In this document: in pieces, positions 8,463 to 56,825 of the stretch | Layout of the letters: each line of letters opens with the position of its first letter | Position numbering within the stretch: the first letter of the stretch is position 1 | Source: Kalaharituber pfeilii | Lineage: Eukaryota; Ascomycota; Pezizomycetes; Pezizales; Pezizaceae | Direction of reading: 5' to 3' | DNA length: 64,000 nucleotides | Assembly: GCA_015179045.1 (NCBI GenBank) | Contig: WHUZ01000011.1 | Coordinates: forward strand, 1,178,001 to 1,242,000 | Program-made: the position numbers and the translations under genes | Notes under the pieces: generated by a model | Seen by the model: only the letters and a program-made list of their open reading frames with translations | Database searches by the model: none | Told to the model about the DNA's origin: nothing

Positions 8463-8523
8463 TCTCGCCATAGCCCCTAGGGCCGCACGCGAGTAATGAT
8501 ATTTAAAAAAAAAAAAAAAAAAA
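8463..8523 (+). mobile_element. Tail-B micro-insertion in the CRN-like gene
   Basis: TCTCGCCATAGCCCCTAGGG...GCGAGTAATGATATTT and about 19 A. TSD TCCCGGATTGTT at 8451-8462 and 8524-8535. The insert splits the sequence just after the Walker A block. Confidence 0.9.
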
Positions 8524-9482
8524 TCCCGGATTGTTATGAACTTCTAACATCCGAGCCACCGGAGCTCTTTCTCATCACAGCTCTTTTTGTCTCATTTCAG
8601 AAGGATACCGACTTATCGGAGAAATCACTGAATTATTTCATGCTGTAGTGTCCAAGGAGTACGCATGACCGCCTGGAATGGGATTTAATTGTCTTTTGTA
8701 ATCTTGCCTCGCGACTTAATAGGACAATCTTATTTGTCGTGGATTCAGCCAACGTATTAGATGACAGCCCGGATGATAGGATTGGTGTTGAAAAAAAACG
8801 GAAAGTCAGGAAGTTGCTCGACGGAATATCTTCAAACCACCTAAAGATTTTCCAGTTCTACAGCAAATTATCGTGCTGCGAAGCATAATGAGTTTCGGGC
8901 TACTTCAGAACCTGACTTACACTCTATCAAGGATTGGACGATGTAAGTGTCTGCTATTCTCACAAACCAAAAGTCAAGAGACTGACAGAGAGTTGAGGAT
9001 GAGATCAGAACATGGTGGAAAGCCTGTGAACCGCAACTAAACCTCCCCAGGCCATTCGATGAGGAACAACAGGTCTCGTTGGAGCGACTCACTGGAAGAA
9101 TGCCCTTCTTGTTACGGGCGCTCACCAGAGTCTGCAAGAATCGTATTGACAATATCAGTTCCAACGCTGCTAAGGAATTGATTGATCCAATTCCTGAAAT
9201 CTACCAGAGAATGATGGACACAGTTGAGGTCCAAAAGATAGTTGAAGGGACACAAGGATGACTCCGCTTTGCAGAGGTAGGTAACCTTGTTGTCCCCTAT
9301 GACATTTCAAAACGTTTACAGCCTAGAAGTAGCTTCCGCAGGGGATAGGAGAATTGCATATTTGAGCAGCCAATGGACATCCAGGACTCAATACATCTCG
9401 ATGGCAGATTTTTCTACCGTGATGCAGCAGGGGTAGGGAGAGTCACCTGCGACCTAGGTCGTGCTGTCGGAGCATCCAGACT

Positions 9483-9540
9483 TTTTTTTTTTTAAATATA
9501 TATATCAGTAATCGCATGCCGCCCTGAGGGCTATGGCGAT
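9483..9540 (-). mobile_element. Tail-B micro-insertion in the CRN-like gene
   Basis: A T run, then the tail-B core in minus orientation with the ATCGC/GCGAT outer stem. TSD GGAGCATCCAGACT at 9469-9482 and 9541-9554 (14 bp, perfect). The insert is 58 bp. Confidence 0.92.
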
Positions 9541-9679
9541 GGAGCATCCAGACTCCGGGAAGTGGATTACCTGGTAAACTTTGTCACAGAGTCCTGGATG
9601 AAAAGAATTTCTCATTCAGGCGATAACTCAGCTGTCCTTGGATTTCTGGTGGAGCGCGTGGCACTTGGTATTCTAGTGC

Positions 9680-10136
9680 TTTTTTTTTTTTTTTTTTTTA
9701 TGTCATTACTCGCATGCCGCCTTGTAGGCTATGGCGAGGATTAAATACATAACAACGAATAAACAGAGTATAACATCACAGAAAAAGTAAAAAAACAACG
9801 TCGCAACATCGAGCGTGTCCTGCACCACTCCGTCTACTCTGCCGCCCAGTCCATCACCTCCGCCAGCGTCATTTCTCCCCCCCTAAACCCCTCATCCCTT
9901 ATCGGCCCCCTTAGTCCTTCCTCTCCTCTCGGTAGTCTCTTCCTCCACACCTCGCACCCCCCCATGATGTGCGCAAAATTTTCATAGTCTCTTCCGCACC
10001 ACCTGCACTCGGGAGAAGTCTCCTTCCCTATCTTGTGTCTCCACTGTCGTAATCCCTTGTTTCCCAAGACTCCCGCGAGAGTGGATACCCTTCTCCTGCT
10101 CCCTAGATACTCCAGTGGTCTGTACGACAACTTCAA
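9680..10136 (-). mobile_element. 5'-truncated LINE-B copy in the CRN-like gene
   Basis: A 457-bp insert flanked by TCTAGTGC at 9672-9679 and 10137-10144. On the minus strand it encodes the LINE-B C-terminus: LKLSYRPLEYLGSRRRV, LAGVLGNKGLRQWRHKIG, PECRWCGRDYENFAHIMGGC, ending WAAE. A 3' UTR, tail-B hairpin (CTCGC/GCGAG; inner CCT/AGG) and poly(A) follow. The Cys/His cluster is intact. The flanking host sequence keeps one reading frame across the insertion point (ALGILV before, GTAVAGPEF after). Confidence 0.85.
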
Positions 10137-10525
10137 TCTAGTGCAACAGGGCACTGCCGTTGCAGGGCCAGAATTTACAAAACCGCTACACTTCGAAAAA
10201 TTCTCGGGTGCGCTTCCACAATCCCCGCCGTCCAAAAATAACACCCCGGTAATATATATCCCAACGGCATACAACTATGAGGGTGTGGATGCAATCTTGG
10301 TGACTCGTATTCAGAAGAAAAAGAGCGAAGCAGCTAGATATGTTATTGTTGGCATCCAGATCACCATTTCGCATAATCATAGCAATTCAGAGGAAATGTT
10401 CATGAAGTCTTGGATGGGCTGGGATGAGCTTGCCGGGGGTGAAGAGACCGAATTTCGGTATCTCTGGATTGTGGAAAATATAGATGGCAGAACCTCCGCT
10501 CGAAGGAAGTAGTCGTGCATCCCGA

Positions 10526-10587
10526 GTGCCCTGCCATGGCGAACAGCTGCACCCGGGGTCACGTGGTAAAAAAAAAAAAAAAAAAAA
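10526..10587 (+). mobile_element. Tail-A micro-insertion in the CRN-like gene
   Basis: GTGCCCTGCCATGGCGAACA...CCCGGGGTCACGTGGT and about 20 A. TSD GTGCATCCCGA at 10515-10525 and 10588-10598 (11 bp, perfect). Confidence 0.9.
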
Positions 10588-10609
10588 AGTGCATCCCGAC
10601 TATCGAAGA

Positions 10610-10667
10610 ATTTTTTTTTATTTTTTTATATCATTACTCGCGTGCCGCCCTATGGGCTATGGCGAAG
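10610..10667 (-). mobile_element. Tail-B micro-insertion
   Basis: A T run, then ATATCATTACTCGCGTGCCG and CCCTATGGGCTATGGCG. TSD TATCGAAGAA (10600-10609) versus TACCGAAGAA (10668-10677), 9 of 10 identical. It lies 12 bp from the tail-A insertion. Confidence 0.75.
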
Positions 10668-10860
10668 TACCGAAGAAGGCATGCATCAATTATGAGCCTG
10701 CATCCTGATTTGGGAAAGCCTCTGGGACAGGCAAGAGCCAATTAGAAGTAAAATATGTGCTATTCAAATACAAGAGGGCATTCATGAGACTAGGCGTTGA
10801 TATTCAAAGAGTAGAATCCTTTTCATACAATTACCACGACTTACCGTTCAAGCGTTAGCC

Positions 10861-11220
10861 AGCAACTGAAAACATGGGTATCGGGAGAGAAGTAAAGTTA
10901 CATAACATATATGCCAAGGCCACTCAGCAGAGCTATTGTTAGTCGCTTCCTCGTTAGAGGGCTACTGTAGTACATAGTTCGTCTAAGGATGTTGCAAGAG
11001 GGTCAATGCCACCACAGTCATTGATTTGATTGATACTGAAGTCTTGAAATATTATCACTGTTCACTTTTCCCTACCTATCGCTTCACTACATGTGACTAT
11101 TTATATAATGGAAGATAGCAATGATGACCAATATAGTTCTACTGTTGTGGTGACGACGACGATGGGCAAAGGTAAGCTTGGCATGGAAGGTACGTGGAGA
11201 TAAGGGCAGCACGTGAGGCC
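10861..11220. other. No recognisable gene
   Basis: No domain or repeat recognised between the CRN-like relic and the next LINE tail. Confidence 0.35.
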
Positions 11221-11930: not shown

Positions 11931-12006
11931 GTTTTGCACAATTATGGAAAATAGACTGTCCAGACTGTATGCATGAAGAATTTTTATTGCACGCTTGAGA
12001 TCATTA

Positions 12007-12969
12007 GAGAGGAACGCATAAGGGTAGAGGCACGAACACTGCGATTCGAAGACGAACCGATCAGGAACCAAGACCCGGAAGTCAAGTACCTACGGGGCAC
12101 ACTGACACATCGCAGCCCACTCCCACTAGCAAGGCTACCCCCCTCCCCGCAGACACCACAAAGGCGGAGTGGGAAGAAGCCATCGCCTCAGCCGAGGATG
12201 AGGGATAGACGAGTCACTACACCGACGGCAGCTGAATAGAAGACGTCTCTGGGGCCGGAACATACACGCCACGCCCACCGAAGCGGACCTCCAATTACCT
12301 AGGACGACTGAGCACCGTCAACGACGCGGAGCTGCTCGCCATGTGTGAAGCACTGGAGAGCTCGGCGAATGAACTACTGGTCATCACCGACTCCAAAACA
12401 GCGATAACCAAACTCCAGAGAATCGCCGATGGAGAACCCAACCACGAAGGAGCCTCACAGCGAGTCAGGGAGGCCTGGGAAAGGAGAGCCGAGACAGGGA
12501 ACTTGGACGTCGCAGTCATGTGGGTGAAAGGACACAAGGGAATAAGCGGCAACACGGAAGCAGACACAGCCGCCAAGATAGGCACACAGCTCCCATACCA
12601 GGACGAGACCGCCACGGAGGCAGGGTGCAGACAGCTAGCCAGAGCCAACAGGGCCAACGAAAGGAATAGACTCAACATCACCTACAGACCGCTACAACGA
12701 CTAGGACCCAGGGTCGCCACCCTGGCTGGCATCCTCGGGAGCAAAGGCCTGAGGGACTGGAAGCACCGAATCGGCGCCGCCGACAGCCCGGAGTGCCGCT
12801 GGTGCGGCGAAGACTACGAGACCACACAACACGTGTTGACCCAATGCAAAATATGGAGACAGAAATGCCCGAGAGGCATAGAGGACCTATGCCGTCCGAG
12901 GGACGACGACGGGACAGGGCGGGGACGAGGAGACAACCTCTTGGCATCAATGGAATGGGCGGGACAATG
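12007..12969 (+). pseudogene. LINE-B pol: RNase H and CCHC-like C-terminus
   Basis: The fragment starts RVEARTLRFEDEP, the region before RNase H. A stop and frame changes at about 12240-12330 remove the first catalytic Asp region. After this, 12341-12970 is open for 209 codons: NELLVITDSKTAITKLQRIA, VAVMWVKGHKGISGNTEADT, NITYRPLQRLGPRVATLAG, then SPECRWCGEDYETTQHVL. The Asp of TDSK and of TEAD and the Cys/His cluster are present. It is a 3' relic that cannot move by itself, but its tail is intact. Confidence 0.8.
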
Positions 12970-13140
12970 AAGGGACATACATTTTCTTGACGTGAATGGG
13001 ACATCTACCTCTCCTTACTTTTCCTTTTCAATTATACCTTTCTGTAAACGCCTCATCTCATGTATTTAAACATCGCCATAGCCCACAGGGCGGCATGCGA
13101 TTAATGATATAAAATAATAAAAAAAAAATAAAAAAAAAAA
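12007..13140 (+). mobile_element. 5'-truncated LINE-B copy with 12-bp TSD
   Basis: A 1134-bp insert flanked by TTGAGATCATTA at 11995-12006 and 13141-13152. It ends with the ATCGC/GCGAT form of the tail-B hairpin and an A-rich tail broken by T. The insertion site is about 70 bp downstream of the MULE relic. Confidence 0.88.
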
Positions 13141-13152
13141 TTGAGATCATTA

Positions 13153-18934: not shown

Positions 18935-18971
18935 CCCTGCCATGGCGAACAGCTGCACGCGGGGTTATGTG

Positions 18972-19010
<39 letters not shown>
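18935..19010 (+). mobile_element. Tail-A micro-insertion with long A tail and 15-bp TSD
   Basis: CCCTGCCATGGCGAACAGCT, GCACGCGGGGTTATGTGAT and 37 A. TSD GAGCCTCTTGTCATG at 18920-18934 and 19011-19025, perfect over 15 bp. The clean TSD and long A run suggest a recent event. Confidence 0.95.
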
Positions 19011-24691: not shown

Positions 24692-27199
24692 TATCAACGT
24701 ACCGAGTGAAATGTTCACATACTCAACATACCCCTGAACTTTCGTCATAAGGCACATGTTAATGTGGAATATGCCAAACGCCCGACAATACCTATATCAA
24801 GAGTTTCCATCACATTTCGTATGGAATCAACCTTCACGGAAATGGACACCATGACAATGAGGAGTTGCAATTGGCCGTATCTATCACTGCAATCCCTTTA
24901 TCTGAAATGTTCACATTCTTCTGAACCTCAACATTCTCGGCATAAGATACAGAAGAATGAGCCAAATTTTATAGGTATGGTATATCTCTCTCACCATCAG
25001 GAGATGAAGTATAACGAGTTCAATTTGACAGGTATAGCAGCAGCTTTCCATAGCACAATAGTAACAGAGTGAGCCGAATTTAACAGGTATAAGAGTACAA
25101 TTTGACTGGTATTCGATGGCACGAGATGCAGCTGAACGAGTCAAATTTGACAGGTATGGTAGCTCTATTTCATCTCGCGAGATATAGCAAAATGAGCTGA
25201 ATTTGATAGGTACTTTGACAGGCACAACAGCTCCTCAATGGTGCGAGATGTAGCAGAACGAGTTAAATTTGACAGGTATGGTAGGTCCATTTCACCCCGT
25301 GAGATGCAGCAAAATGAGCCGAATTTGACAGGCACTTTGACAGGCGCGACAGCTCCTCAATGGTGCGAGGTGCAGCAGAACGAGTCAAATTTGACAGGTA
25401 TGGGAGGTCCATTTCACCTTACGAGATGTAGCAAAATGAGCTGAATTTGATAGACACTTTGACAGGCACGACAGCTCCTCAATGGTGTGAGGTGCAGCAG
25501 AACGAGTCAAATTTGACAAGTATGGTAGGTCCATTTCACCCCGCGAGATGCAGCAAAATGAGCCGAATTTGACAGGCACTTTGACAGGCACAACAGCTCC
25601 TCAATTTGACAGGCACAATAGCTCCTCAATTTAACAGGCACGACAGCTCCTCAATTTGGCAGGTACGACAGCTCCTCAATTTGATAGGCACGACAACTCC
25701 TCAATTTGACAAGCACGACAGCTCCTCAATTTGACAAGCATGACAGCTCCTCAATGGTGCGAGATGCAGCAGAATGAGCCGAATTGAATAGGTATAACAG
25801 TCTCCCTCAATGGCGCAAGATGAGGATGGATGTGGTCAAGTTGACAGATATGACCTTGACAGGGAAAAATGAGGCAGAATAAGCTCAATTTAATAGGTAC
25901 AGTAGAATAAACTAACTTTAACAAGTATATAGGTATGGCAAGACTCTTTTACGGCACGAGATACAAAAGAATGAGCCAAATTTCATAAGTATGGCACACC
26001 TCTCTTACCAGCGTGAGATGTAGTAAAACGAACTCAATTTGAGAGGTATAGTAGCACCTTTCCACAGGAGAGTAGCAGAGTGAGCTAAATTTGACAGCTA
26101 TAATAGGACTCTTTCCGCATTGTGAGATATAGCAGAATGAGCACAATTTGATAGTTATGCGATAGCACAAGATGCAGCAGAACAAGAGTCAAATTTGACA
26201 GATATAACAGGTCTATTTCAGCCTGGAAGATGCAGCAGAATAAGCCGAATTTGACAGGGATTGGTAGATCTCTCTTGCCAACATGAGATACAGCAGGGCG
26301 AGAAGAATTTGACAGGCATGACAGCTCCTCAATAATGTGAGATGCAGCAGAATGAGCCGAATTCAATAGGAATGGCAGTCTCTCTTGATGGTGTGAGACG
26401 AGGCAGAATGAGCTCAATTTAACAGGGTATGACAGCTTCCTTTCGATGGCGTGAGATGAGGCAGAATGAGCTCAAGTTGACAAGTATCACAGGACTCTTT
26501 CCACAGTGTGAGAACAGCAGAATGAGCCAAATTTGACAGGTACGGCAGGACGCACCTGGCAGCGTGGAACATAGTAAAATGAGCTCAATTCACAGTTAAG
26601 GCTGGCCCCTTTCTATGGTACAAAGTGAGGCGGTATGGCTCAATTTGACAGATACAATAAGACCTCCTTGATGGTGCAAGATATGCCAAAATGAGCTCAA
26701 TTTACAATTCTACAGGTATGGCAGATTACTTTCGATAGTGCGAGATGGGGCAAAATGAGAATGCGCTGGACCGGTACGGCATGGTGCTAGAGGCCAGATA
26801 AGGAAGCTAGGTACACATGAAAGGGCATATACTAGACATCTGAGTAATATCATTGCGAGTAGATATTAATAGGAATTTACGTAGAGTTTATGGGCTGTAA
26901 CGAGGGTTTCGCTATCCATAAGCTCTACAATTATTAGCATTATATTCCACAAAATATATAAAATTAACCTTCTGAAGCTACATTTGGTACTAGAGCTCCC
27001 TGGATGCAGGAGTAGGATTGCATGATATTATAAATAACAATGAGAATATACTGATATGAATAAATGCAGAGAAACGAGATTGTACGGTCATGGAGCTGGT
27101 AAAGAGTGTACAGTCACTTGACGCCGACTTTACGGGTCCCTTATCCACTACCGCTACACCTACATTCACCCTCGCGGTCGCGAGGTGGCCACATGCTAG
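24692..27199 (+). repeat. Macro-repeat unit 1
   Basis: Starts TATCAACGTACCGAGTGAAA, contains the ~51-bp minisatellite array (about 25040-26760), then a non-repetitive part ending GCGAGGTGGCCACATGCTAG. The next base pairs restart the same sequence at 27200, so the units are in direct tandem. The unit is 2508 bp. Confidence 0.85.
25040..26760 (+). repeat. Degenerate ~51-bp minisatellite array (unit 1)
   Basis: Monomers consist of AGCAGAAYGAGCYRAATTTG, ACAGGTATGGYAGGTC and a spacer ending CGAGATG. Inside, a 25-bp sub-array (AGCTCCTCAATTTGACAGGC) repeats several times at 25585-25750. Because 51 is a multiple of three, long stop-poor frames appear on both strands. I do not call them genes. Confidence 0.85.
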
Positions 27200-30187
27200 T
27201 ATCAACGTACTGAGTGAAATGTTCACATACTCCTGAACCTCAACATACCCCTGAACCTTCGTCATAAGGCACATATTAATGTGGAATATGCCAAACGCCC
27301 GACAATACCTATATCAACAGTTTCTATCACATTTCGTATGGAATCAACCTTCACGGAAATGGACACCACGACAATGAGGAGTTGCAATTGGCCGTATCTA
27401 TCACTGCAATCCCTTTATGTGAAATGTTCACATTCTCCAGAACCTCAACATACTCGGCATAAGATACAGAAGAATGAGCCAAATTTTATAGGTATGATAT
27501 ATCTCTCTCACTATCAGGAGATGAAGCATAACGAGTTCAATTTGACAGGTACAGCAGTAGCTTTCCATAGCACAATAGTAACAGAGTGAGCTGAATTTAA
27601 CAGGTATAAGAGTACAATTTGACTGGTGTTGGATGGCACGAGATGCAGCTGAACAAGTCAAATTTGACAGGTATGGTAGGTCCATTTCACCTCGCGAGAT
27701 ACAGCAAAATGAGCTGAATTTGATAGGCACCTTGACAGGCACGACAGCTCCTCAATGGTGTGAGGTGCAGCAGAACGAGTCAAATTTGACAGGTATGGTA
27801 GGTCCATTTCACCCCGCGAGATGCAGCAAAATGAGCCGAATTTGACAGGCACTTTGACAGGCACGACAGCTCCTCAATCGTGTGAGGTGCAGCAGAACGA
27901 GTCAAATTTGACAGGTATGGTAGGTCCATTTCACCCCGCGAGATGCAGCAAAATGAGCCGAATTTGACAGGCAGTTTGACAGGCACAACAGCTCCTCAAT
28001 TTGACAGGCACGATAGCTCCTCAATTTAACAGGCACGACAGCTCCTCAATTTGACAGGCACGACAGGTCCTCAATTTGATAGGCACGGCAGCTCCTCAAT
28101 TTAACAGGCACGACAGCTCCTCAATGGTGCGAGATGCAGCAGAACGAGTCAAATGTAATAGGTATGGTAGGTCTATTTCACCTCACGAAATGCAGCAAAA
28201 TGAGCCGAATTTGACAGGCACTTTGACAGGTATGATAGCTCCTCAATGGTGTGAGATGCAGCAGAATGAGCCGAATTTAATAGGTATAACAGTCTCCCTC
28301 AATGGCGTAAGATGAGGATGGATGTGGTCAAGTTGACAGATATGACCCTGACAGGCAAAAATGAAGCAGAATAAGCTCAATTTAACAGGTATGACAGCTT
28401 TCTCTCAATGGCGCGAGATGTGGCCGAATGAGCTCAAGTTGACAAGTATTACAGGACTCTTTCCATAGCGTAAGAGCAGCAGAATGAGCTGAATTTGACA
28501 GGTATAGTAGGTCTCTCTTGCCCTGCCATGGCGAACAGCTGCAAGCGGAGTTATGTGAAAAAAAAAAAAAAAGAGTAGGTCTCTCCTGACAGCACGAGAT
28601 GCAGCAAAACGAACTCAATTGGACCGGTGTGTAGGTCTCCCTTGATAATACCAGATACAGTAGAATAAACTAACTTTAACAAGTATATAGGTATGGCAAG
28701 ACTCTTCTATGGCACGAGATACAAAAGAATGAGCCAAATTTCATAAGAATGGCACACCTCTCTTACCAGCGTGAGATGTAGTAAAACAAACTCAATTTGA
28801 GAGGTATAGTAGCACCTTTCCACAGGAGAGTAGCAGAGTGAGCTAAATTTGACAGATATAATAGGACTCTTTCCGTATTGTGAGATATAGCAGAATGAGC
28901 ACAATTGGATAGTTATTCGATAGCACAAGATGCAGCAGAACGAGAGTCGAATTTGACAGGTATGGCAGGTCTATTTCAGCCTAGGAGATGCAGCAGAATA
29001 AGCCGAATTTGACAGGGATTGGTAGATCTCTCTTGCCAACATAAGATACAGCAGGGCGAGCACAATTTGATAGGCATGACAGCTCCTCAATAATGTGAGA
29101 TGCAGAAGAATGAGCCGAATTCAATAGGAATGGCAGTCTCTCTCGATGGTGTGAGACGAGGCAGAATGAGCTCAATTTAACAGGGTATGACAGCTTCCTT
29201 TCGATGGTATGAGATGAGCCAGAATGAGCTCAAGTTGACAAGTATTACCGGACTCTTTCCACAGTGTGAGAACAGCAGAATGAGGCATATTTGACAGGTA
29301 CGGCAGGACCCACCTGGCAGCGTGGAACATGGTAAAATGAGCTCAATTCACAGTTAAGGCTGGCCCCTTTCTATGGTGCAAAGTGAGGCGGTATGGCTCA
29401 ATTTGACAGATACAATAAGACCTCCTTGATCGTGCAAGATATGCCAAAATGAGCTCAATTTACAATTCTACAAGTATGGCAGATTACTGCAACATGAGAA
29501 TGCGCTGGACTGGTACAGCATGGCGGGGTGATAAAGGGGCACCTGCCAAAGGTTACAATCATCGGCTACTATAGTACCTACTGATTCCGGCTTCATTCCC
29601 CACCCTTTACTGTTTTTTAAATCGCAAGCACTCTATAGATAGCGATAGCTATGTCTACTCTTCATCATCACCCTCAGCCTTCAATTCTTCCACTTTCTCA
29701 TATCCTCTTGCCATCATTCCAGCTGTATTAGTTATATCTTTTTAATTACCTTACACCTGTTAATATTCTCACTTGAATAGCATTTATACGTGGGTCTAGA
29801 GGGCGGATAAGGAAGCTGGGTACACCTAAAAGGGCATATGCTGGACATCTGGCAATATCATTGTGGGTAGATATTAACCGGAATTTAGGTAGAGTTTATG
29901 GGCTGCAACGAGGGTTTCGCTATCCATAGGTTCTACAATTATTAGTATTATACTCCACAAAATATATAAAATTAATACTAGAGCTCCCTGGATGCAGGAG
30001 TGTGATTACGTGATATTCTAAATAACAATGAGAATATACCGATATGAATAAATGCAGAGAAACGAGATTGTACGGTCATGGAACTGGTAAAGAGTGTACA
30101 GTCACTTGACGCCGACTTTACGGGTCCCTTATCCACTACCGCTACACCTACACTCACCCTCGCGGTCGCGAGGTGGCCACATGCTAG
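27200..30187 (+). repeat. Macro-repeat unit 2
   Basis: Repeats unit 1 with a few per cent divergence. Differences: a tail-A micro-insertion at 28521-28573, extra monomers around 28380-28650, and about 270 bp of unrelated sequence at about 29520-29795. It ends with the same GCGAGGTGGCCACATGCTAG. Confidence 0.85.
28521..28573 (+). mobile_element. Tail-A micro-insertion inside a minisatellite monomer
   Basis: CCCTGCCATGGCGAACAGCT, GCAAGCGGAGTTATGTGA and about 15 A. TSD AGTAGGTCTCTCTTG (28506-28520) versus AGTAGGTCTCTCCTG (28574-28588), 14 of 15 identical. Unit 1 lacks the insertion. Confidence 0.88.
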
Positions 30188-31761: not shown

Positions 31762-32962
31762 TCACCGTTTAGCTAACTCAGCTTCAGCCACTTCGGCACC
31801 AGTAGGCCCACGAGTAGTACCTTTTGTCTTTGGATTATGTGAGGTTGGGATACTAGATGCTGTTCGAAACTGGGTCCGGAAGCTTGGTTCTGGAGAAGGT
31901 AAAATTGTAGTTGGGAAAGTGGGAGTTTTCCAACAAGTTTGCAATGCTTGAACAGTTTGTTGAAACTCTCGAACTTGATGTGCTACTATATGAGCAGGTT
32001 GTGCTGCAAAATGACTCTCGAGATTGTATGTTGTCTGAACAAAGTTGTATCGACCTTGAGGGTCAGGTAAGAGATTAGGTATTAGAAGTGAAGTGGATAA
32101 TGAGGTCTGAGTATTGTCAAGAGTCATAGTCCAGTGTTGATATGGATCCCATGCGGATTTGTTGAGATACCAACGAGGATGAATAAGTGAAAGTGGGATG
32201 GACTCCTCAAGAAGAAAAAATGTGCGCAGAAAGTGTTGACATGGGATAGCATATTGGATATTAATTGAGCATGTAGTACAAGGAGTATTTCCCATATCTT
32301 TAGCAGAATCAGAGTTCTGGTAAGTAGGAGATGATGCTGCTTGCTATTCATATTTTAATATGTCGATGCAATACATAGTAACATGCCCCTGTAACTGTGA
32401 AAATGCTCCGATACCAGTATTATCTAGATGAAGTGGCCAATGAAGTATCATTACTAACTTTATCGAAGTACCGTATCTTTATATATATATTAGTTATACT
32501 TGTATAATTTTTTTTTTTTTTTTTAGAGATATAAATTAGAAGAAATACTTACTAGATGATGAACGGCTTCATCAAGATTATGCCTTGGATCTAAGAATGC
32601 TTTAATTGCAGGATAAGACCTTCAGCTCACTGTGTACTATAGCAATCAAGATTTCTATAGTTGCATGTATGAATTTGAAGTACTTGATGTATTTTAGGAA
32701 GCCAAAACTCATCAATATACTGACGTTCAACAGGTAGTAACACCTCTTGCATATCATTGAAGACTTTTTCAAAAGTTTCCCAAGATATACACTATATCTA
32801 AGCCCAAATACGCAGACGAATAATCTTTAGTATATCCTCACTTGCAACCTCAGATGTCATTCCCTTACATATTCTCATGGTCTTGGTCGAATGTAAAATG
32901 TTCCGGATAATCAAATGGATTTTCTACATCGCCATAGCCCACAGGGCGGCACGCGATTAATG

Positions 32963-32999
<37 letters not shown>

Positions 33000-33478
33000 T
33001 TTCTGCCATCTCATGGGTATTCTCAAGTTGCTTTACTCCTATAAACCATTCCTTTTGAAGGCTACCTTTGCTGGTCTTTTCTACCTTCTGTAGGAATATA
33101 TATACCTCCCATTTGCAGCCAAGGTGTCGATGCTACCTCAATAGTTAATATCCAAACTAAATAGATATATTTATAATTGACTTACCAAGGCCTGGCGTTG
33201 ACGAAGCTTTTTTCTAGAGTCAGTCTTGCTCATACCATCACTAGCTTTATATTCCTTTTGGGTCACAGCAGTGGCTGTTAAACTATAGCGATCGCGAGGA
33301 GCATCACCATAGTGGACACATCTATAGCGGATTCTTCCACATTGCTCTGAGCCACTTGCTACCGAAATCAAGAAGCCTTGAGAAAAGGCATAAGCCTGCA
33401 AACGGGTTTTCGCAGCACTGGGGTTTAGCCCATATGGATTTACTTCTATTTTTTCGTACTTGTACTTTGTTTTGATGT
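31762..33478 (-). pseudogene. MULE transposase gene, FAR1-like to SWIM, decayed
   Basis: On the minus strand the N-terminus (33440-33190) reads VNPYGLNPSAAKTRLQAYAF, GFLISVASGSEQCGRIRYRC, VHYGDAPRDRY, resembling the FAR1-type DNA-binding region of fungal MULE proteins. It ends at a GTAAGT donor near 33180. Middle pieces include KGSLQKEWFIGVKQLENTHE, VERQYIDEFWLPKIHQVL and AIKAFLDPRHNLDEAVHHL. The last part (32295-31762) is open for 177 codons and carries a SWIM-like CTTCSINIQYAIPCQH. Stops and frame changes lie between. A tail-B micro-insertion (32926-32995) interrupts the middle. The catalytic DDE residues cannot be placed. Confidence 0.65.
32926..32995 (+). mobile_element. Tail-B micro-insertion in the MULE relic
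   Basis: ACATCGCCATAGCCCACAGG, GCGATTAATGAAATT and about 28 A. TSD GGATTTTCT at 32917-32925 and 32996-33004. The outer stem is ATCGC/GCGAT. Confidence 0.88.
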
Positions 33479-33959: not shown

Positions 33960-34571
33960 CGACCGAGTGGAAAGGACAAGATACGAAGGACAGGCCACAG
34001 AGGACAGTATGTGTCAGGAGTGAATTTGAAACTGAAACCAGGAGAGAGAACAAACCTGTTTTGTCCTGGGAAAGTTCGTGGGGTGGCGCAGGAAGGTCCT
34101 TATCAACCTGCAACTGGCTGCGATTGGGAAAGGTGGAAGCATGTGGAGGAGAACAGTGGTGAGTAGGTGCACTGCACATGCGGTGAGGAGTGGAGAGCTG
34201 CATCGAGCTGGGGCGGCCAAGTGGAGGGACAAGGATGAGGCGCAGGTCACGTGGTGGTGCTGGGAGGACTTGGAGGACTTGGAGGAGAAAGGGTGGATGC
34301 AGGAGGCAGTTTTTTTTTTTTTTATTTCATTACTCGCGTGCCTCCCTATGGGCTATGGCGAGGGCAGGAGGCAGTAGAGGGGAATCAGAGGAACAGCTCA
34401 GTGCCCTGGGCCTGAGTTAGCAGCAGGATCCGCGGTACCATTGGATACGTATTTATCTTAATATAGGGAGTGTACGTAGATAGTCTCTAACCTGACCGGG
34501 ATCCGAATATATGGGTCCCTGCGAATGCTGGTAGTCTGTATCCCGGGCAATATGTCCCAAAAAAAAAACAA
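33960..34571 (+). mobile_element. LINE-A 3' relic with poly(A)
   Basis: CTAHAVRSGELHRAGAAKWR, QVTWWCWEDLEDLEEKGW and the 3' UTR (ATATGGGTCCCTGCGAATGC) match the 77-1157 copy. The equivalent TTTGA stop is at about 34024. The hairpin end has decayed (TGTATCCCGGGCAATATGTC). A tail-B micro-insertion sits at 34311-34363. Confidence 0.7.
34311..34363 (-). mobile_element. Tail-B micro-insertion in LINE-A
   Basis: T13, ATTTCATTACTCGCGTGCCT, CCCTATGGGCTATGGCGAGG. TSD GCAGGAGGCAGT at 34299-34310 and 34364-34375 (12 bp, perfect). The insert is 53 bp. Confidence 0.92.
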
Positions 34572-36504: not shown

Positions 36505-36563
36505 CCCTTCCATGGCGAATAGCTGCAGTTGGGGTTACGTGATAATAAATTTAAAAAAAAAAA
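36505..36563 (+). mobile_element. Tail-A micro-insertion
   Basis: CCCTTCCATGGCGAATAGCT, GCAGTTGGGGTTACGTGATA and A-rich end. TSD CGGGACAAATAC at 36493-36504 and 36564-36575 (12 bp, perfect). Confidence 0.9.
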
Positions 36564-36657
36564 CGGGACAAATACGAGTGACGATGGGGATAAAAACAAA
36601 ATAAATAAATAAATAAATAAGTTGTCAGCTGAACAACCTGATGTAGCCCGAAATGCC

Positions 36658-36716
36658 TTTTTTTTTTTTTTTTTTGATCACGTAGCCCCGCATACAGGCT
36701 CCGAGCGCCATGACAG
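36658..36716 (-). mobile_element. Tail-A insertion with LINE-A-type loop
   Basis: T run, then GATCACGTAGCCCCGCATAC, AGGCTCCGAGCGCCATGACA. The loop (GAGCCTGTAT on the minus strand) is that of LINE-A, not of the common micro-insertions. TSD unclear (CGAAA shared). Confidence 0.6.
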
Positions 36717-37099: not shown

Positions 37100-37151
37100 C
37101 CCTGCCATGGCGAATAGCTGCATGCGGGGTCACGTGAAATAAATAAAAAAT
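37100..37151 (+). mobile_element. Tail-A micro-insertion in copia RT
   Basis: CCCTGCCATGGCGAATAGCT, GCATGCGGGGTCACGTGAAA, A-rich end. TSD TGTTTATTGG at 37090-37099 and 37152-37161 (10 bp, perfect). Confidence 0.9.
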
Positions 37152-39133: not shown

Positions 39134-39979
39134 CTGTAGTTCACCACTTTCCCGGACACCCCACTTTCCCGGACACATTTACCACCAAAACTGCGCAACT
39201 TTCGCACTCAATATCTCAACAACCACAACAGCATTTGTGAATGCGCTTTGTATAGCTATTAGACAAAGTGTGATTCTTGCTATCTAGCACTTTTTCTTCA
39301 TCAAAAATTGTGGGTGCAAAGGGATTATGGCTTGTCGCATTTTTGTTGGAAGGCTTGGCATTTATTTGTATGGGATCTCCATACAAAACGTTCATAAGAC
39401 TTGAATATAGTCCTACTCTTCAACGCTAATTACAATAGCTATGATAGTATATGTCAAGAATCACCTGAAGAGTTATAGTAAGGTGCTGCATTTAGTTTAC
39501 TTTCATTTGTTGAATTGTAGAGTTGGTGTACAACTATCTACTTTTGGGTGTGTTTCGTATACAAATGGTTTGTATGGGAAATATGAATATTGTGAATAAT
39601 TTCACAACTGCTACAGGTATTACTTAACTACGTTGCTCATGGTTTCCAACTGAGTGATCCTATTGAATGTGAGTGTCTGAGTTTTTTTCATGAATTGATT
39701 GCATGTGTAGCATGCAGAATTCGGGGGTGGTGACATTTGTATGGAGATCCCATACAAATAAATGCCAAGCCTTCCAACAAAAATGCGACAAGCCATAATC
39801 CCTTTGCACCGATGAAGAAAAAGTGCTAGATAGCAAGAATTACACTTTGTCTAATAGCTATACAAAGCGCATTCACAAATGCTGTTGTGGTTGTTGAGAT
39901 ATTGAGTGCGAAAGTTGCGCAGTTTTGGTGGTAAATGTGTCCGGGAAAGTGGGGTGTCCGGGAAAGTGGTGAACTACAG
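39134..39979. mobile_element. MITE M1, copy 1 (846 bp, ~255-bp TIRs)
   Basis: Starts CTGTAGTTCACCACTTTCCC and ends with the reverse complement; pairing extends to the AAATGCCAAGCCTTCC block. Flanked by TA at both ends. The left end duplicates a CCACTTTCCCGGACA module. The centre is non-coding. Copy 2 is at 52671-53498 and a worn right end at 51124-51290. Confidence 0.9.
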
Positions 39980-40179
39980 TATGCAGTTGGCATGTAAAGC
40001 TATATAAGACCATCTCAACCTATTTGTCTTTACCAAAAAATAGTTCTGGGGGGCTTATATATCATCGCATTTTCCTAGAACGTCTTAGCATTAGTTTACA
40101 TTATGTGAGATTATGAAATGCTTTTTTTCAAGCCACGCGACACCTGCATACAGGCTCTCAGCATGTAGTTAGCAGAAAC

Positions 40180-40633: not shown

Positions 40634-40696
40634 TGCCCTGTCATGGCGAACAGCTGCACGCGGGGTCACGTGAAAAAAAAAAAAAAAAAAAAAAAA
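40634..40696 (+). mobile_element. Tail-A micro-insertion
   Basis: TGCCCTGTCATGGCGAACAG, CACGCGGGGTCACGTGA and about 25 A. TSD ACCCCTCAAACA at 40622-40633 and 40697-40708 (12 bp, perfect). Confidence 0.92.
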
Positions 40697-44815: not shown

Positions 44816-44828
44816 TAGTCACCCACGA

Positions 44829-44879
44829 TCGCCATAGCCCTTAGAGCGGCAACCGATCAATGATATATAAAAAGAAAAA
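44829..44879 (+). mobile_element. Tail-B micro-insertion
   Basis: TCGCCATAGCCCTTAGAGCG, CGATCAATGATATAT and an A-rich end. TSD TAGTCACCCACGA at 44816-44828 and 44880-44892 (13 bp, perfect). The insert is 51 bp. Confidence 0.92.
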
Positions 44880-45369
44880 TAGTCACCCACGACTGTGTAA
44901 TCGCGGCTACGATGCCTACCCAGAATGGGAAAGAGTTTTGATTTTACGAAAAATGCTAGAGACGTATCATACGGGGCGATATGCAGAATGGACCTGTCCT
45001 AGATTGCATACGCTTTGACTGTCGTTACTCCTGATCTGAGTTGAAGTTAGACGACGCCAAAAAACACTTTGCAAGGTAGGTCAAATAGTTAGTCTCGATA
45101 ACCAGACGCTTCTATAATGGTAGAGGTATATAGGGGCTCCAAAATTTGGAGCTTTTGTATGGCATCTCAAGCCACCACGAGGTTTCTTGCAATAGTATGT
45201 TGTGATATAATACCGTTACCCCTACGGGACTGGTACCTGCTACAGTGTTTCCATTTATTTTACGCCTGTAACACCGGGACACTCACAGGCAGAACTTGTT
45301 ACTTCCCCTTCATACTGGAGGAGCCGGGGACAAAACGCTCATGTTATTTGGTTTTTGCTCTTCTCCTAT

Positions 45370-46149: not shown

Positions 46150-46700
46150 GGAAGGGGAAACACAAACTGAACTAGAGACACCATTGCGGCTGTCATATGC
46201 AGCAATTGTCTCACAAAACATTCCACCAACACCACCTGCCCCTCAAAAATCTTCCACGTCCTGAGCACAACCTTCAACAAAGGGCAAGAAGATACTCATA
46301 GCTCCGAATCCAACCAAAGGGCAGTCTTCGAAGCCCTCAAACGTTTTCCCTCGCCATAGCCCCAAGGGCGGCACGCGAGTAATGATATAAAAAAAGAAGC
46401 CCTCAAAAGCTTCGCGAACAGTTAAACCTGCCTCAGTGTGGTCGCGAAAATTGTGGTACATGGAATAGCAACAACCAAAAAGCTGAGAAAGGTTAGGGAC
46501 TGGATGGAGAAGGCGAACCCATGAATTGGGAGTATAGTTGCAGCCCGATGGTTGGTGAAGGAGAGAATTGAAGGAAAGAAGACCAGCTTAGTAATCTACC
46601 TAAAAGGAGAGATAGAATCAGATGGTCAAATACTATCGAAGGTAAGGTTGTTGGGGAAGATGGCTGCACTTGAAATTACATGAGTGGAATAGAGTGAGTA
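46150..46700 (+). pseudogene. LINE ORF1 (gag-like) relic
   Basis: SYAAIVSQNIPPTPPAPQKS near 46190, a stop near 46262, KGKKILIAPNPTKGQSSKPS, then after a micro-insertion ARWLVKERIEGKKTSLVIYL (46545-46605) and SKVRLLGKMAALEIT. The order matches fungal LINE ORF1 (proline-rich N-terminus, then the GxRWL...KxxSxVIYL block also seen in the ORF1-only elements). The zinc-knuckle region is missing. Confidence 0.5.
46342..46395 (+). mobile_element. Tail-B micro-insertion in LINE ORF1 relic
   Basis: CGTTTTCCCTCGCCATAGCC, CCAAGGGCGGCACGCGAGTA, short A tail. TSD GAAGCCCTCAAA at 46330-46341 and 46396-46407 (12 bp, perfect). Confidence 0.92.
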
Positions 46701-50222: not shown

Positions 50223-51123
50223 TATCATCTTATTACTTTTCAGTAAACGGAAATCAACTATACTCCCACCTTCTTTATTCATACAAACTCTTCACTTTTC
50301 AGTAAACAGAAATCAACTATACTCCCATCTTCTTTATTCATACAAACTCTTCACTTTTCAATAAACAGAAATCAACTATACTCCCATCTTCTTTATTCAT
50401 CCAAACTCTTCACTTATGTTACAATATGTCAAACGAATCAACGTGCATACAGTGCCAAACTCTCAAAGATAGTGCTAGAAAACCTAATAAAATAAAAAGA
50501 AAATATTTTACTATTTTAAGAGATAACTATAAATATATAATCTAATATTAGACTTTTAGTTACTATTTTATTTTATTTTTCTATTTTTTTTTTTATTTTT
50601 TTTATTTTTTTTTGAGTCACCCAATCCGACATTCAAAACTATCAGCTTATTTAGCGAGCTGAGTCTTTTGATCTAATTTATATTCTCAAATACTCAACTA
50701 GTTATCTCTTAAAATAGTAAAATATTTTCTGTTTATTTTATTAGATTTTCTAGCACTATCTTTGAGAGTTTGGCACTGTATGCACGTTGCTTCGTTTGAC
50801 ATATTGTAATGTAAGTGAAGAGTTTGGATAAATAAAGAAGATGGGAGTATAGTTGATTTCTGTTTACTGAAAAGTGAAGAGTTTGTATGAATAAAGAAGA
50901 TGGGAGTATAGTTGATTTCTGTTTACTGAAAAGTGAAGAGTTTGTATGAATAAAGAAGATGGGAGTATAGTTGATTTCTGTTTACTGAAAAGTGAAGAGT
51001 TTGTATGAATAAAGAAGGTGGGAGTATAGTTGATTTCTGTTTACTGAAAAGTGAAGAGTTTGTATGAATAAAGAAGGTGGGAGTATAGTTGATTTCCGTT
51101 TACTGAAAAGTAATAAGATGATA
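50223..51123. mobile_element. Fold-back element with 59-bp repeat arms
   Basis: The ends TATCATCTTATTAC and GTAATAAGATGATA are inverted. Each arm is a tandem array of a 59-bp unit (starting CTTTTCAGTAAACAGAAATC): three copies on the left (from 50236) and five inverted copies on the right (to about 51112). Unique inverted sequence (CAAACTCTCAAAGATAGTGC) and an AT-rich centre follow inside. No coding capacity. No TSD could be defined. Confidence 0.85.
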
Positions 51124-51290
51124 ACATCTACAATTTTTGAGCAGGCAAAAGTGCTAGATTGCAAGAATGGCCTTTTGGTTAATACCTACATAAAGCACAT
51201 TAAGAAATGCTGGTGTGGTTGTTGAGATATTCAGTGCGAAAGTTGTGCAATTTTGGTGAGGAAGGTGTCCCGATTGTTAGAGATCTACAG
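51124..51290. mobile_element. Worn right end of MITE M1
   Basis: AGTGCTAGATTGCAAGAATG, GTTGTTGAGATATTCAGTGC, GAAAGTTGTGCAATTTTGGT and a final CTACAG|TA match the M1 right terminal repeat. The left end is missing, replaced by the fold-back element. Confidence 0.75.
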
Positions 51291-52670: not shown

Positions 52671-53498
52671 CTGTAGTTCACCACTTTCCCGGACACATTT
52701 ACCACCAAAACTGCGCAACTTTCGCACTCAATATCTCAACAACCATAACAGCATTTGTGAATGCGCTTTGTATAGCTATTAGACAAACTGTAATTCTTGC
52801 TATCTAGCACTTTTCTTCATCAAAAATTGTGGGTGCAAAGGGATTATGGCTTGTCGCATTTTTGTTGGAAGGCTTGGCATTTATTTGCATGGGATCTCCA
52901 TACAAAACGTTCATAAGACTTGAATATAGTCCTACTCTTCAACGCTAATTACAATAGCTATGATAGTATATGTCCAGAATCACCTGAAGAGTTATAGTAA
53001 GGTGCTGCATTTAGTTTACTTTCATTTGTTGAATTGTAGAGTTGGTGTACAACTATCTAGTTTCTCATACAAATGGTTTCTATGGGAAATATGAATATTG
53101 TGAATGATTTCACAACCACTACAGGTATTACCTAACTACGTTGCTCATAGTTTCCAACTGAGTGATCCTATTGAATGTGAGTGTCTGAGTTTTTTTCATG
53201 AATTGATTGCATGTGTAGCATGCAGAATTCGGGGGCGGTGACATTTGTATGGAGATCCCATACAAATAAATGCCAAGCCTTCCAACAAAAATGCGACAAG
53301 CCATAATCCCTTTGCACCCACAATTTTTGATGAAGAAAAAGTGCTAGATAGCAAGAATTACAGTTTGTCTAATAGCTATACAAAGCGCATTCACAAATGC
53401 TGTTATGGTTGTTGAGATATTGAGTGCGAAAGTTGCGCAGTTTTGGTGGTAAATGTGTCCGGGAAAGTGGTGTGTCCGGGAAAGTGGTGAACTACAGT
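52671..53498. mobile_element. MITE M1, copy 2 (828 bp)
   Basis: Same ends and interior as 39134-39979 with few differences, flanked by TA (52669-52670 and 53499-53500). The extra CCACTTTCCCGGACA module is at the right end only, whereas copy 1 has it at both ends. Confidence 0.92.
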
Positions 53499-53504
53499 AT
53501 TAAC

Positions 53505-54280: not shown

Positions 54281-54329
54281 GAGGAGTCATTCAGTAGACT
54301 GCGCCCTCCACGTTGGGGACGCAGTAGTA

Positions 54330-55102: not shown

Positions 55103-55531
55103 TTAAACAAATGCGATTTTCTTTCTCGGGCGGTCCCGAGCTTCGTTTTGCTGTAACTTTTGCTTTCTGAAGGCGCCGGGAAGGTTGTTTTCTTCCAAGC
55201 GCTCGTTCTGTGAAAATTGTTGTCGGTGGTCCGGCTTGGTCTCAGATGGTGATACCGGAGCTTTCCCTATTGCAGCAAGTTTCATTTTTTCTAGACAGAA
55301 GTAGAGTTCTTGAGTCGCGCACCGCCGGACCAACGAGAGCACAAATAATAATGCCAGTAGGGCCCAAGTGAACCATATCACAACCCCTCGAGGTACACCG
55401 GAGATCCGAGATACTAGGTTCAAACATTTCTTGCGTAATGACGATAGGTGCGACCATGTAGGTGGTAAAAGGAACGCTAGTACTATCCTGGTTGCTTGGT
55501 CTGAGAGTGCCCTGACGCGTATATGCTGCAA
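55103..55531 (-). CDS. Hypothetical 142-aa protein with one membrane segment
   Basis: An open frame starting MQHIRVRALSDQATRIVL. A hydrophobic span (VVIWFTWALLALLFVLSLV, about residues 49-67) is followed by a basic, Gln-rich tail (QQFSQNERLEENNLPGAFRK) to the stop. There is no known motif. A frame beginning at 55577 overlaps in another phase. It may be a real small membrane-anchored protein or chance. No splice sites or expression signals are visible. Confidence 0.3.
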   Translation of the reverse strand: MQHIRVRALSDQATRIVLAFLLPPTWSHLSSLRKKCLNLVSRISGVPRGVVIWFTWALLALLFVLSLVRRCATQELYFCLEKMKLAAIGKAPVSPSETKPDHRQQFSQNERLEENNLPGAFRKQKLQQNEARDRPRKKIAFV

Positions 55532-55693
55532 TGGAGATTGGGCAGCGTGGTTGGTAGGGGTAACAGTATGCCGACACTGCGTGTGATATTCTTATTAGAT
55601 TGAGATGACTGCTGAACAGAGCATGTTATTTTATTTTATATTGTTTTTAGATCATCAAGCGCGTTTCGCCCAGAGGGCTAGTGTGGGTGTTCT

Positions 55694-55876
55694 GGCCCAG
55701 CGACGAACATTCTCCGGTTCGCGAACCGGCCAGTCGATTCGCGAATCGGCCGGCCCCGTGAAAAACACAGCCCAGCCACGAACACCTGGCCTAGCGGCGA
55801 AGATGAATGTACCTCTATATACCTATATGTATATATATGGCCAGTTTTGCGAACCACAATATTCGTCAGTGGGCTA
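55694..55876. mobile_element. Possible 180-bp short TIR element
   Basis: GCCCAGCGACGAACATTCTC, CGGTTCGCGAACC on the left and GGTTCGCAAAACTGGCC, GACGAATATT (reverse complement of the right end) pair imperfectly over about 35 bp. No TSD seen. Confidence 0.35.
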
Positions 55877-55897
55877 GCACATGAGTCATGAATTGGG

Positions 55898-55959
55898 GTT
55901 TTTTTTTTTTTTATCATTGATCGCGTGCCGCCCTGGGTGCTATGGCGATTTAGTTACAT
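55898..55959 (-). mobile_element. Tail-B micro-insertion in ORF1 relic
   Basis: T13, ATCATTGATCGCGTGCCGCC, CTGGGTGCTATGGCGATTTA, GTTACAT. TSD ATGAATTGGG at 55888-55897 and 55960-55969 (10 bp, perfect). Outer stem ATCGC/GCGAT. Confidence 0.9.
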
Positions 55960-55969
55960 ATGAATTGGG

Positions 55970-56140
55970 CCTTAGATACGTAGTAAAGGGGGTTGAGAAG
56001 AAAATCACCAACTCAGTTGTGATATACCTAGAGGAGCAAAGTCCACCCGGAGCAGAATTCAATACCAGCGAGAGTGAGATTAGGAGGGAAATGGCTGAAG
56101 TTCCTGCCAGTACGAGTGGGATAGAGCCTAAAGTGGATGC
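55970..56140 (+). pseudogene. LINE ORF1-like relic
   Basis: VVKGVEKKITNSVVIYLEEQ and SEIRREMAEVPAS resemble the KKxSxVVIYLE block of the ORF1-only elements. Too short for a family call. Confidence 0.35.
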
Positions 56141-56159
56141 TTGGCGCTTGCAAGGGTTC

Positions 56160-56720
56160 TATTACCAGTACCGTATGGGTAACGATGTGCACACCGGTAA
56201 CGCTGGGCACCTTGGCGCCAGTTTTGCACCCTCTCCAACATCAAATGTTAGGCATATCTCACAGAATATATTTCTAATATGTATGATGAATTAATTATAG
56301 GCCATATTGACTGCGCTGATTCTGAATTTGAAGGGAAAAAAGTGAAAATGCTACTCCTACAGCACCTACAGTTGCCACATCCCTCTACCTTATAAAATAA
56401 CCTCCTCTGGTACCTACCAGCAAATACCAACTCACTGCAACGCTCTACCTGCTCATGCAATAGTAGGAATGGTAGGGATGGTACTACCAGTGCTATATTA
56501 CAATACATGAGTAGTAACAGCTTCAGATCTGTAACATAGCACTGTATGCTCCTGTAGCAAGAAATTATGCATAACTAAGAAATTGAGCATTTTCCGGATG
56601 CGACAACAAAAAATTTCTGTGAGTGCAAATAGCTCTCAAGGGCGCTCAAATTGAAGCCAGAGCATGGTAGAATACATGGAATTATCTTCCGCATATTCAT
56701 TGAGCCAATTTTTAGGAGAT
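56160..56720 (+). repeat. Dispersed repeat R3, copy 3
   Basis: GTATGGGTAACGATGTGCAC, CCGGTAACG and, near 56650, TTGAAGCCAGAGCATGGTAG match copies at 18.2-18.6 kb (inverted) and 40.2-40.4 kb. Confidence 0.55.
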
Positions 56721-56767
56721 GGGTAGTGACCTATTTGGTATATCCCAAATCCTATACTAGACATACT

Positions 56768-56825
56768 TCGCCATAGCCCCCAGGGCGGCACGCGAGTAAT
56801 GATATAAAAAAAAAAAAAAAAAAAA
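56768..56825 (+). mobile_element. Tail-B micro-insertion
   Basis: TCGCCATAGCCCCCAGGGCG, GCGAGTAATGATAT and about 20 A. TSD TACTAGACATACT at 56755-56767 and 56826-56838 (13 bp, perfect). Confidence 0.93.

What the first reader, a model, noticed from the sequence alone, without database searches (positions are those of the whole stretch)
8463..56825. Tail-B hairpin-only retroposons: insertions of about 35-45 nt plus poly(A) with clean TSDs
Nine insertions (8463, 9483, 10610, 32926, 34311, 44829, 46342, 55898, 56768) consist of one tail-B hairpin, a short GCGAG/GCGAT-TAATGATAT end and A tail, with TSDs of 9-14 bp. They are far shorter than known SINEs, carry no Pol III boxes that I can see and hit genes, LINEs and a MULE alike. 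They look like minimal substrates for the LINE-B machinery and form a very frequent mutagen in this genome.
Basis: partly seen in the sequence, partly recalled or inferred. Interest (0 to 1): 0.9.

Follow-up and report, generated by a model that had tools for sequence, protein, structure and literature searches.

The report
Retrotransposon insertions of only a hairpin
In this fungal genome (very probably that of a desert truffle), two groups of jumping genes have left many tiny insertions, by extrapolation several hundred, that hold only the small hairpin at the end of the jumping gene plus a run of A and start at the foot of that hairpin, likely because their own enzymes copied RNA that had probably been trimmed back to the hairpin.

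Summary
All nine insertions are real: 51-70 nt including the A tail, each touching both copies of a 7-14 bp target duplication. The decisive test is passed. Of 154 tail-B copies picked by their 3' end alone, 51 have a target duplication within 95 nt: 35 start at the hairpin base, 12 inside the hairpin, 4 further upstream. Empty paralogous sites confirm insertion. Short and long tail-B copies share target motif and target-duplication length, and their hairpins are equally close to each other, so the short ones are best read as LINE products from many sources, not as an independent SINE, though a weak haplotype signal (P 0.03) leans the other way. Two stem pairs covary, one of them at the base where insertions begin. 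Because reverse transcriptase melts the hairpin from its 3' side, an end at the 5' foot is best explained by template RNA already ending there, for example trimmed by a 5' exonuclease stopped by the hairpin or a bound LINE protein. Early termination of reverse transcription is the main rival. New variant of a known kind.

The parts
8463..8523 (+). tail-B hairpin-only insertion, TSD TCCCGGATTGTT at 8451-8462 and 8524-8535
9482..9540 (-). tail-B hairpin-only insertion, TSD GTCTGGATGCTCC at 9541-9553 and 9469-9481
10611..10670 (-). tail-B insertion with 5 nt upstream of the hairpin, 7-bp TSD TTCTTCG at 10671-10677 and 10604-10610
32926..32995 (+). tail-B hairpin-only insertion (GCGAT type), TSD GGATTTTCT at 32917-32925 and 32996-33004
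34311..34363 (-). tail-B hairpin-only insertion, TSD ACTGCCTCCTGC at 34364-34375 and 34299-34310
44829..44879 (+). tail-B hairpin-only insertion, TSD TAGTCACCCACGA at 44816-44828 and 44880-44892
46342..46395 (+). tail-B insertion with 9 nt upstream of the hairpin, TSD GAAGCCCTCAAA at 46330-46341 and 46396-46407
55898..55959 (-). tail-B insertion with 11 nt LINE-B-like sequence upstream of the hairpin, TSD CCCAATTCAT at 55960-55969 and 55888-55897
56768..56824 (+). tail-B hairpin-only insertion, TSD ATACTAGACATACT at 56754-56767 and 56825-56838; diverged paralogous empty site in L012
3298..3359 (-). tail-A hairpin-only insertion, TSD AGATCAATAGACTT
4481..4534 (-). tail-A hairpin-only insertion, TSD ATCTCCGTACGC
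10526..10588 (+). tail-A hairpin-only insertion, TSD GTGCATCCCGA, 22 bp from the tail-B insertion at 10611
18935..19010 (+). tail-A hairpin-only insertion, TSD GAGCCTCTTGTCATG
28518..28573 (+). tail-A hairpin-only insertion, TSD AGTAGGTCTCTC
36505..36563 (+). tail-A hairpin-only insertion (diverged), TSD CGGGACAAATAC
37100..37151 (+). tail-A hairpin-only insertion, TSD TGTTTATTGG
40634..40696 (+). tail-A hairpin-only insertion, TSD ACCCCTCAAACA
12236..12970 (+). C-terminal ORF of a LINE-B copy: RNase H, and zinc-binding domain of reverse transcriptase below its curated cut-off
13073..13100 (+). tail-B hairpin at the 3' end of the LINE-B copy that carries the RNase H ORF

Best explanation
The nine insertions, and eight tail-A counterparts in the same window, are target-duplicating insertions that hold the 3'-terminal hairpin of a resident LINE plus poly(A) with at most 11 nt more, likely made by that LINE's own machinery from LINE RNA that had probably been trimmed back to the foot of the hairpin before reverse transcription. 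Shown: insertion (TSDs and empty paralogous sites), a sharp 5'-end peak at the hairpin base in two LINE tails, covarying stem pairs in tail B, and the same target motif and TSD length as longer LINE-B copies. Inferred: mobilisation by target-primed reverse transcription with the LINE's own protein, from many LINE sources. Inferred and untested: a 5'-to-3' RNA-decay enzyme, or another nuclease, degrades LINE RNA until it meets the hairpin, or the LINE protein bound to it, and leaves a hairpin-poly(A) stub that still satisfies 3'-end recognition; the enzyme copies the stub to its end, sometimes adds 1-3 untemplated nucleotides, and integrates it.
For: 5'-end peak: 48 of 108 TSD-resolved hairpin copies start between -3 and +12 nt of the hairpin, 1 between 13 and 30 nt (224 examined, hairpin required). 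Picked by the 3' end only: 21 of 57 resolved in 7 nt (101 examined); 35 of 51 at the base, 12 inside, 4 upstream (154 examined, recount). Looser 3' scan: 51 of 77 in 8 nt (281 examined; Poisson P 2e-27 against the in-hairpin rate); without 63 copies fetched by hairpin-demanding patterns 40 at the base, 16 inside, 7 upstream of 63 resolved (218 examined). These samples overlap. Tail A: 29 of 31 resolved lie 22-31 nt upstream of GCGGGG (46 examined); 9 start exactly at G, 5 have a TSD ending in G and 4 in GC, and 9 carry 1-3 nt before that G, mostly unlike the LINE-A sequence CAGGGGCCC, as expected if an enzyme runs off a template end (passages of PMC2718515). GCGAT-type tail B: 8 of 15 fit a start at the A that pairs at the stem base (5 precise, 3 with a TSD ending in A). 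Pairing: stem base 161 of 167 (113 expected if independent), loop-closing pair 161 of 167 (143 expected), in longer and unresolved copies. Same machinery: pyrimidine before the nick in 38 of 44 short and 43 of 50 long tail-B copies. Empty sites.
Against: No RNA data, so no trimmed RNA has been seen. In GCGAG-type tail B the 5' ends spread over about 5 nt and include LINE-matching ACC (10 of 41 listed), which early termination would also give. Twelve of 51 tail-B insertions start inside the hairpin, and one tail-A copy at 16 nt (L123), so reverse transcription itself also stops early at times. In a young LINE-B subfamily at most 33 of 122 copies lack the 11-nt LINE body, so the hairpin-only share varies a lot. 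The tail-A hairpin folds no better than most shuffles (33 of 200 as good). Tail-B short and long copies share only 5 exact haplotypes of 43 and 44, with a weak same-class excess (0.574 against 0.497, P 0.03).
Confidence: 0.55

Rival explanations
1. Early termination: the LINE enzyme starts on full-length LINE RNA but falls off just after copying the hairpin it had been bound to, and the short cDNA is then integrated.
For: Raised termination inside the hairpin too (12 of 51) and a steep drop upstream (4 of 51 over 65 nt); GCGAG-type ends spread over a few nt and carry LINE-matching ACC, CC or C; LINE-A copies seem to have a second hairpin a few nt upstream of the tail-A hairpin (by eye), which could slow the enzyme; junctions with microhomology and extra nt also occur at ordinary 5'-truncated R1 and R2 copies (passages of PMC2718515).
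Against: The hairpin is opened from its 3' side, so a stop linked to melting should lie inside it, not at its 5' foot (inference). Tail A is sharp: 27 of 29 base copies fit one nucleotide and none of the 31 resolved lies at positions 0-21, although one of 21 in an earlier scan lies at 16 and two unresolved copies (L216, L219) look truncated inside. I see no upstream hairpin in tail-B copies (by eye).
Confidence: 0.3
2. An independent minimal SINE: a small gene makes a hairpin-poly(A) RNA of about 40 nt that uses the LINE machinery.
For: In the first tail-A scan 18 of 26 copies with G just before the hairpin were short, 8 unresolved and none resolved as long; discrete 5' end; weak haplotype clustering and limited exact haplotype sharing for tail B.
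Against: Copies with LINE sequence upstream exist for several tail-A haplotypes of the short copies; short tail-B copies are as close to long ones as to each other (1.88 against 1.85 differences); no match of the window to any Rfam family at gathering score.
Confidence: 0.1
3. Ordinary 5' truncation: the short copies are just the low end of a broad length distribution.
Against: The peak at the hairpin base exceeds neighbouring positions many times in two tails and in each sample.
Confidence: 0.03

Closest known systems
LINE/SINE pairs with stringent 3'-end recognition (UnaL2, SART1; passages of PMC3747384 seen)
   Same: A conserved 3' stem-loop with compensatory changes, shared by autonomous and short elements, ending in simple repeats or poly(A).
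   Different: A SINE adds a head with its own promoter and forms its own lineage (recalled); here there is no head and the insertion is essentially the recognition hairpin alone.
5'-truncated LINE copies (R1, R2; passages of PMC2718515 seen; L1 from recall)
   Same: Shared 3' end, TSDs, microhomology or extra nucleotides at the 5' junction.
   Different: Usual truncation is broad (PMC3747384 gives 100 to 1,000 bp for most members); here one class starts within a few nt of a fixed structural landmark.
Protected decay fragments left where a 5'-to-3' exonuclease is stopped by RNA structure (recalled, no call)
   Same: A defined 5' end at the foot of a structure would arise the same way.
   Different: Such fragments are not known to me as reverse-transcribed genome insertions, and no RNA was seen here.

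Membership tests
SINE | Head derived from a Pol III gene (tRNA, 7SL, 5S) with internal promoter | tested here: not met
   Bodies of about 38-49 nt consist of the LINE tail and at most 11 nt more; no Rfam match in the window at gathering score. Promoter boxes were judged by eye only.
SINE | 3' tail shared with a partner LINE | tested here: met
   Of 69 RNase H matches in held loci, 50 have tail B next, 40 of these 72-200 nt downstream; 5 have tail A, 14 neither within 900 nt (loci mostly chosen for tail B).
SINE | Own source lineage, distinct from the LINE | tested here: inconclusive
   Against: equal distance to long and short copies and LINE-bearing tail-A haplotypes. For: P 0.03 in the neighbour test and 8 of 48 short tail-B copies with an exact haplotype also seen in a long copy.
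5'-truncated LINE copy | TSDs and target motif of the LINE | tested here: met
5'-truncated LINE copy | 5' ends spread broadly along the element | tested here: not met
   Sharp peak at the hairpin base
LINE with stringent-type 3' hairpin | 3' stem-loop kept by compensatory changes | tested here: met
   Tail B: two of nine stem pairs covary, the other seven hardly vary. Tail A was not tested for covariation.
LINE with stringent-type 3' hairpin | Hairpin required for retrotransposition | not testable with these tools
   Needs a retrotransposition assay.

The most novel reading that the evidence does not exclude
Two LINE families of one fungus generate, by trimming of their own RNA, a discrete hairpin-poly(A) stub of about 40 nt that is a fully sufficient natural template; in tail A this stub yields most new insertions, so that the main genomic product of the LINE is its own recognition hairpin.
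Probability: 0.4. Interest if true: 0.8.

Novelty: new variant of a known kind. Interest (0 to 1): 0.66.

Why it matters
It would show in nature the smallest template that LINE machinery accepts (one hairpin plus poly(A)), and it would suggest a very short, clean insertion cassette for genome writing. It also offers a genomic readout of where LINE templates end, which would link RNA decay to retrotransposition, and points to a class of mutagen that usual repeat annotation would probably miss because of its size.

Tried and rejected
Independent small family: set aside as main reading after the haplotype comparison and the search for LINE-bearing tail-A haplotypes, but not excluded. An early idea that loops beginning with C mark a hairpin-only subfamily was wrong: such loops are found in long copies too. 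CpG decay by copy length (escape of short copies from repeat silencing): no clear difference at the ACG site between short (18 ACG, 19 ATG of 46) and long (24, 19 of 53) copies. A known RNA family: none in the window at gathering score. Pfam pieces of the window LINEs: only RNase H and a weak zinc-binding domain found, so the LINE clade was not settled. Papers: eight searches answered, three of them with no paper; search listings seen, and passages of PMC3747384 and PMC2718515; no listing described hairpin-only insertions, which says little about subscription journals.

Rows dropped or kept: hairpins with more than 4 edits, copies too near an end of the held stretch, one copy without the tail motif, and duplicates (similar limits). 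Copies without a detectable TSD (116 of 224, 15 of 46) stayed in the denominators; some are visibly short with a decayed TSD. The long class required a TSD of 10 bp or more, the short class 9; with 9 for both, long TSDs run from 9 to 16. Target tables used 44 of 48 short tail-B copies, because four TSDs reach into the hairpin. One search includes copies fetched by hairpin-demanding patterns; one search recounts without them. The empty-site search used 77 short insertions against the held loci only; 11 alignments that I chose from its hits were printed, and three of them (L007/L014, L201/L030, L059/L085) are gapped near the junction or lie in tandem repeats and are not counted as evidence.
Full report
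What was examined. The window is bases 1178001-1242000 of contig C13 of a 78.03 Mb assembly in 360 contigs. The RNase H ORF at 12236-12970 finds seven proteins, all of Kalaharituber pfeilii, best 74% identical, and one of them lies on a contig of 1,541,133 bases, the length of C2 here, so the genome is very probably that of this desert truffle (Pezizales). The genome could be searched, but only about 0.29 Mb of it, in pieces, could be read. The samples are mostly the first places listed by each search (contigs C1 to C35), not random draws.

Observation. All nine insertions exist and touch both copies of their target duplication. A fuzzy scan of the window found about 30 tail-B hairpins, of which these are short. 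The tail is a hairpin, (C/A)TCGCCATAGCCC-NNN-GGGCGGCACGCGA(G/T), followed by TAATGATAT and A's; three tail-B versions fold to the same 5 bp plus 4 bp stem and beat most shuffles (z about -2), while tail A folds to a hairpin that 33 of 200 shuffles match.

Is there a discrete class? Yes. For 224 tail-B hairpins, a TSD of at least 9 bp was found within 700 nt for 108; 48 of these start between -3 and +12 nt of the hairpin, one between 13 and 30 nt, the rest spread to 700 nt; with flanks swapped among copies about three chance TSDs per round appear, none within 60 nt. That sample requires a hairpin, so a second used the 3' end alone: of 101 copies, 57 resolved, 6 starting inside the hairpin, 21 within 23-29 nt of GCGAG (the hairpin base), 2 at 30-59 nt, 28 beyond (11 chance hits in three control rounds, none nearer than 113 nt). 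Three 3'-end variants gave 12 inside, 35 at the base, 4 further up, of 51 resolved (157 examined, control 1.6 per round; the same counts among 154 after removing four loci fetched by a hairpin pattern). A looser 3' scan gave 16, 51 and 10 of 77 resolved and 281 examined, control 2; leaving out 63 copies fetched by hairpin-demanding patterns, it gives 16, 40 and 7 of 63 resolved and 218 examined. These samples overlap. The peak exceeds the in-hairpin rate with Poisson P of about 2e-27 (on the counts).

A second tail. Tail A (GCCCTGCCATGGCGAACAGCTGCACGCGGGGTCACGTGA plus A's) has another hairpin sequence. The first 45 places of a search by its 3' end, plus one in the window, gave 46 copies with 31 resolved: 29 start 22-31 nt upstream of GCGGGG, two lie in LINE sequence at 62-63 nt; control 0.8 per round. 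Of the 29, nine begin precisely at G, five have a TSD that ends in G and four in GC, and nine carry 1-3 nt before that G (C, C, T, T, TC, AT, TT, AG, TCT), mostly unlike the LINE-A sequence CAGGGGCCC; the two others start at 22 and 31. An earlier, looser scan has one resolved copy at 16 nt, inside the hairpin (L123), and two unresolved copies (L216, L219) look truncated inside. Of the first 100 places with the exact G-type haplotype (692 in the genome), 8 coincide with a copy that carries the exact LINE sequence CCCAGGG(G/A) upstream (compared by eye). So hairpin-only copies are probably the majority in tail A: 63% proven by TSD in the 3'-end sample (29 of 46), and up to about 92% by the absence of that exact LINE sequence. 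The window holds eight of them.

Are they insertions, and by whom? Paralogous empty sites held in the sample align through the junction with a single copy of the TSD: 395 of 400 positions for a tail-B copy (L029 against L051), 137 of 138 for a tail-A copy (L225 against L051), 272 of 288 (L146 against L032), and a more diverged one for window 56768 in L012. TSD lengths are 9-16 in short and in long tail-B copies, and the base before the nick is a pyrimidine in 38 of 44 short and 43 of 50 long copies. Short tail A differs from short tail B at the first TSD base (T in 1 of 29 against 19 of 44, P 1e-4), which suggests that two different LINE endonucleases are at work. Tail B follows the RNase H coding end of LINEs: of 69 RNase H matches in the held loci 50 have tail B next, 5 tail A, 14 neither within 900 nt; the loci were mostly chosen for tail B, so the ratio is biased.

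Own lineage or LINE products? A short tail-B hairpin is as close to a long copy as to another short one (1.88 against 1.85 differences), with a weak same-class excess (0.574 against 0.497, P 0.03). Exact 38-nt haplotypes are very diverse: 43 among short and 44 among long copies, 5 shared, covering 8 of 48 short copies. For tail A several haplotypes of the short copies also occur with LINE sequence upstream. One young tail-B haplotype has 122 exact copies, 89 of them with the exact 11-nt LINE body and thus at most 33 hairpin-only (the 89 counted by eye in the listing). The tail-B hairpin is under constraint: the stem-base pair is C-G in 127 and A-U in 29 of 167, the loop-closing pair C-G in 134 and U-A in 22.

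Mechanism. Shown: insertion with TSD, a 5' end at a structural landmark in two tails, and the LINE-B target motif. Inferred: target-primed reverse transcription by the LINE's own protein from many LINE sources. The open step is why the 5' end is there. Reverse transcriptase copies the 3' arm of the hairpin first and has opened it well before reaching its 5' foot, so a hairpin cannot easily stop it at that foot; but a nuclease that comes from the 5' end meets that foot first. I therefore favour template RNA trimmed to the hairpin (0.55) over early termination (0.3), which is supported by the ends inside the tail-B hairpin, the spread of GCGAG-type ends and a possible second hairpin just upstream in LINE-A. 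R1 and R2 junction work describes untemplated nucleotides when the enzyme runs off a template, and both microhomology and extra nucleotides at truncated copies (passages of PMC2718515), so junctions alone do not decide.

Abundance. The three exact tail-B 3' ends number 747, 420 and 730; with the sampled shares this projects to about 440 base-peak insertions, and 29 of 46 of the 670 tail-A ends to about 420 (by hand). These are rough figures that assume the first-listed contigs are typical; diverged tails and copies with decayed TSDs are left out.

Novelty. LINE 3' hairpins with compensatory changes and SINEs that share them are known (passages of PMC3747384). A discrete class of insertions made of the hairpin alone was not seen in the listings of eight searches. 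I rate it a new variant of a known kind.

Noticed in passing
window 10515-10677: A tail-A and a tail-B short insertion of opposite orientation lie 22 bp apart, each with its own target duplication.
   Followed up: partly
tails A and B in general: The two hairpins share GCCAT(A/G)GC in the 5' arm and GCA(C/T)GCG in the 3' arm, so the two tails may be related by descent.
   Followed up: no
window 1077-1140 and about 36650-36710 (-): A further tail variant (CCTGCCATAGGCTGGTAGCCTGTATGCGGGGTTACGTGA or similar) resembles tail A with another loop; its insertion lengths were not studied.
   Followed up: no
window 58247-63158: ORFs of an LTR-type retrotransposon; the last one (61308-63158) has reverse transcriptase, RNase H and integrase zinc-binding domains.
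   Followed up: no
window 24994-29316: Arrays with a 122-nt period at 24994-25659 and 27511-28423 with further shared segments, copies 60-100% alike.
   Followed up: no
window 50754-51170: Tandem repeat with a 59-nt period, copies up to 98% alike.
   Followed up: no
window 39161-39982 and 52681-53500: Two copies of a segment of about 0.8 kb at 97-99% identity, possibly a recent mobile-element duplication.
   Followed up: no
LINE-A 3' ends, e.g. L204, L195, L084, L030: Upstream of the tail-A hairpin different copies carry GGGTCTAGACCC, GGACTTCGGTCC or GGGCTTGCCC, which look like one hairpin kept by compensatory change (by eye).
   Followed up: no
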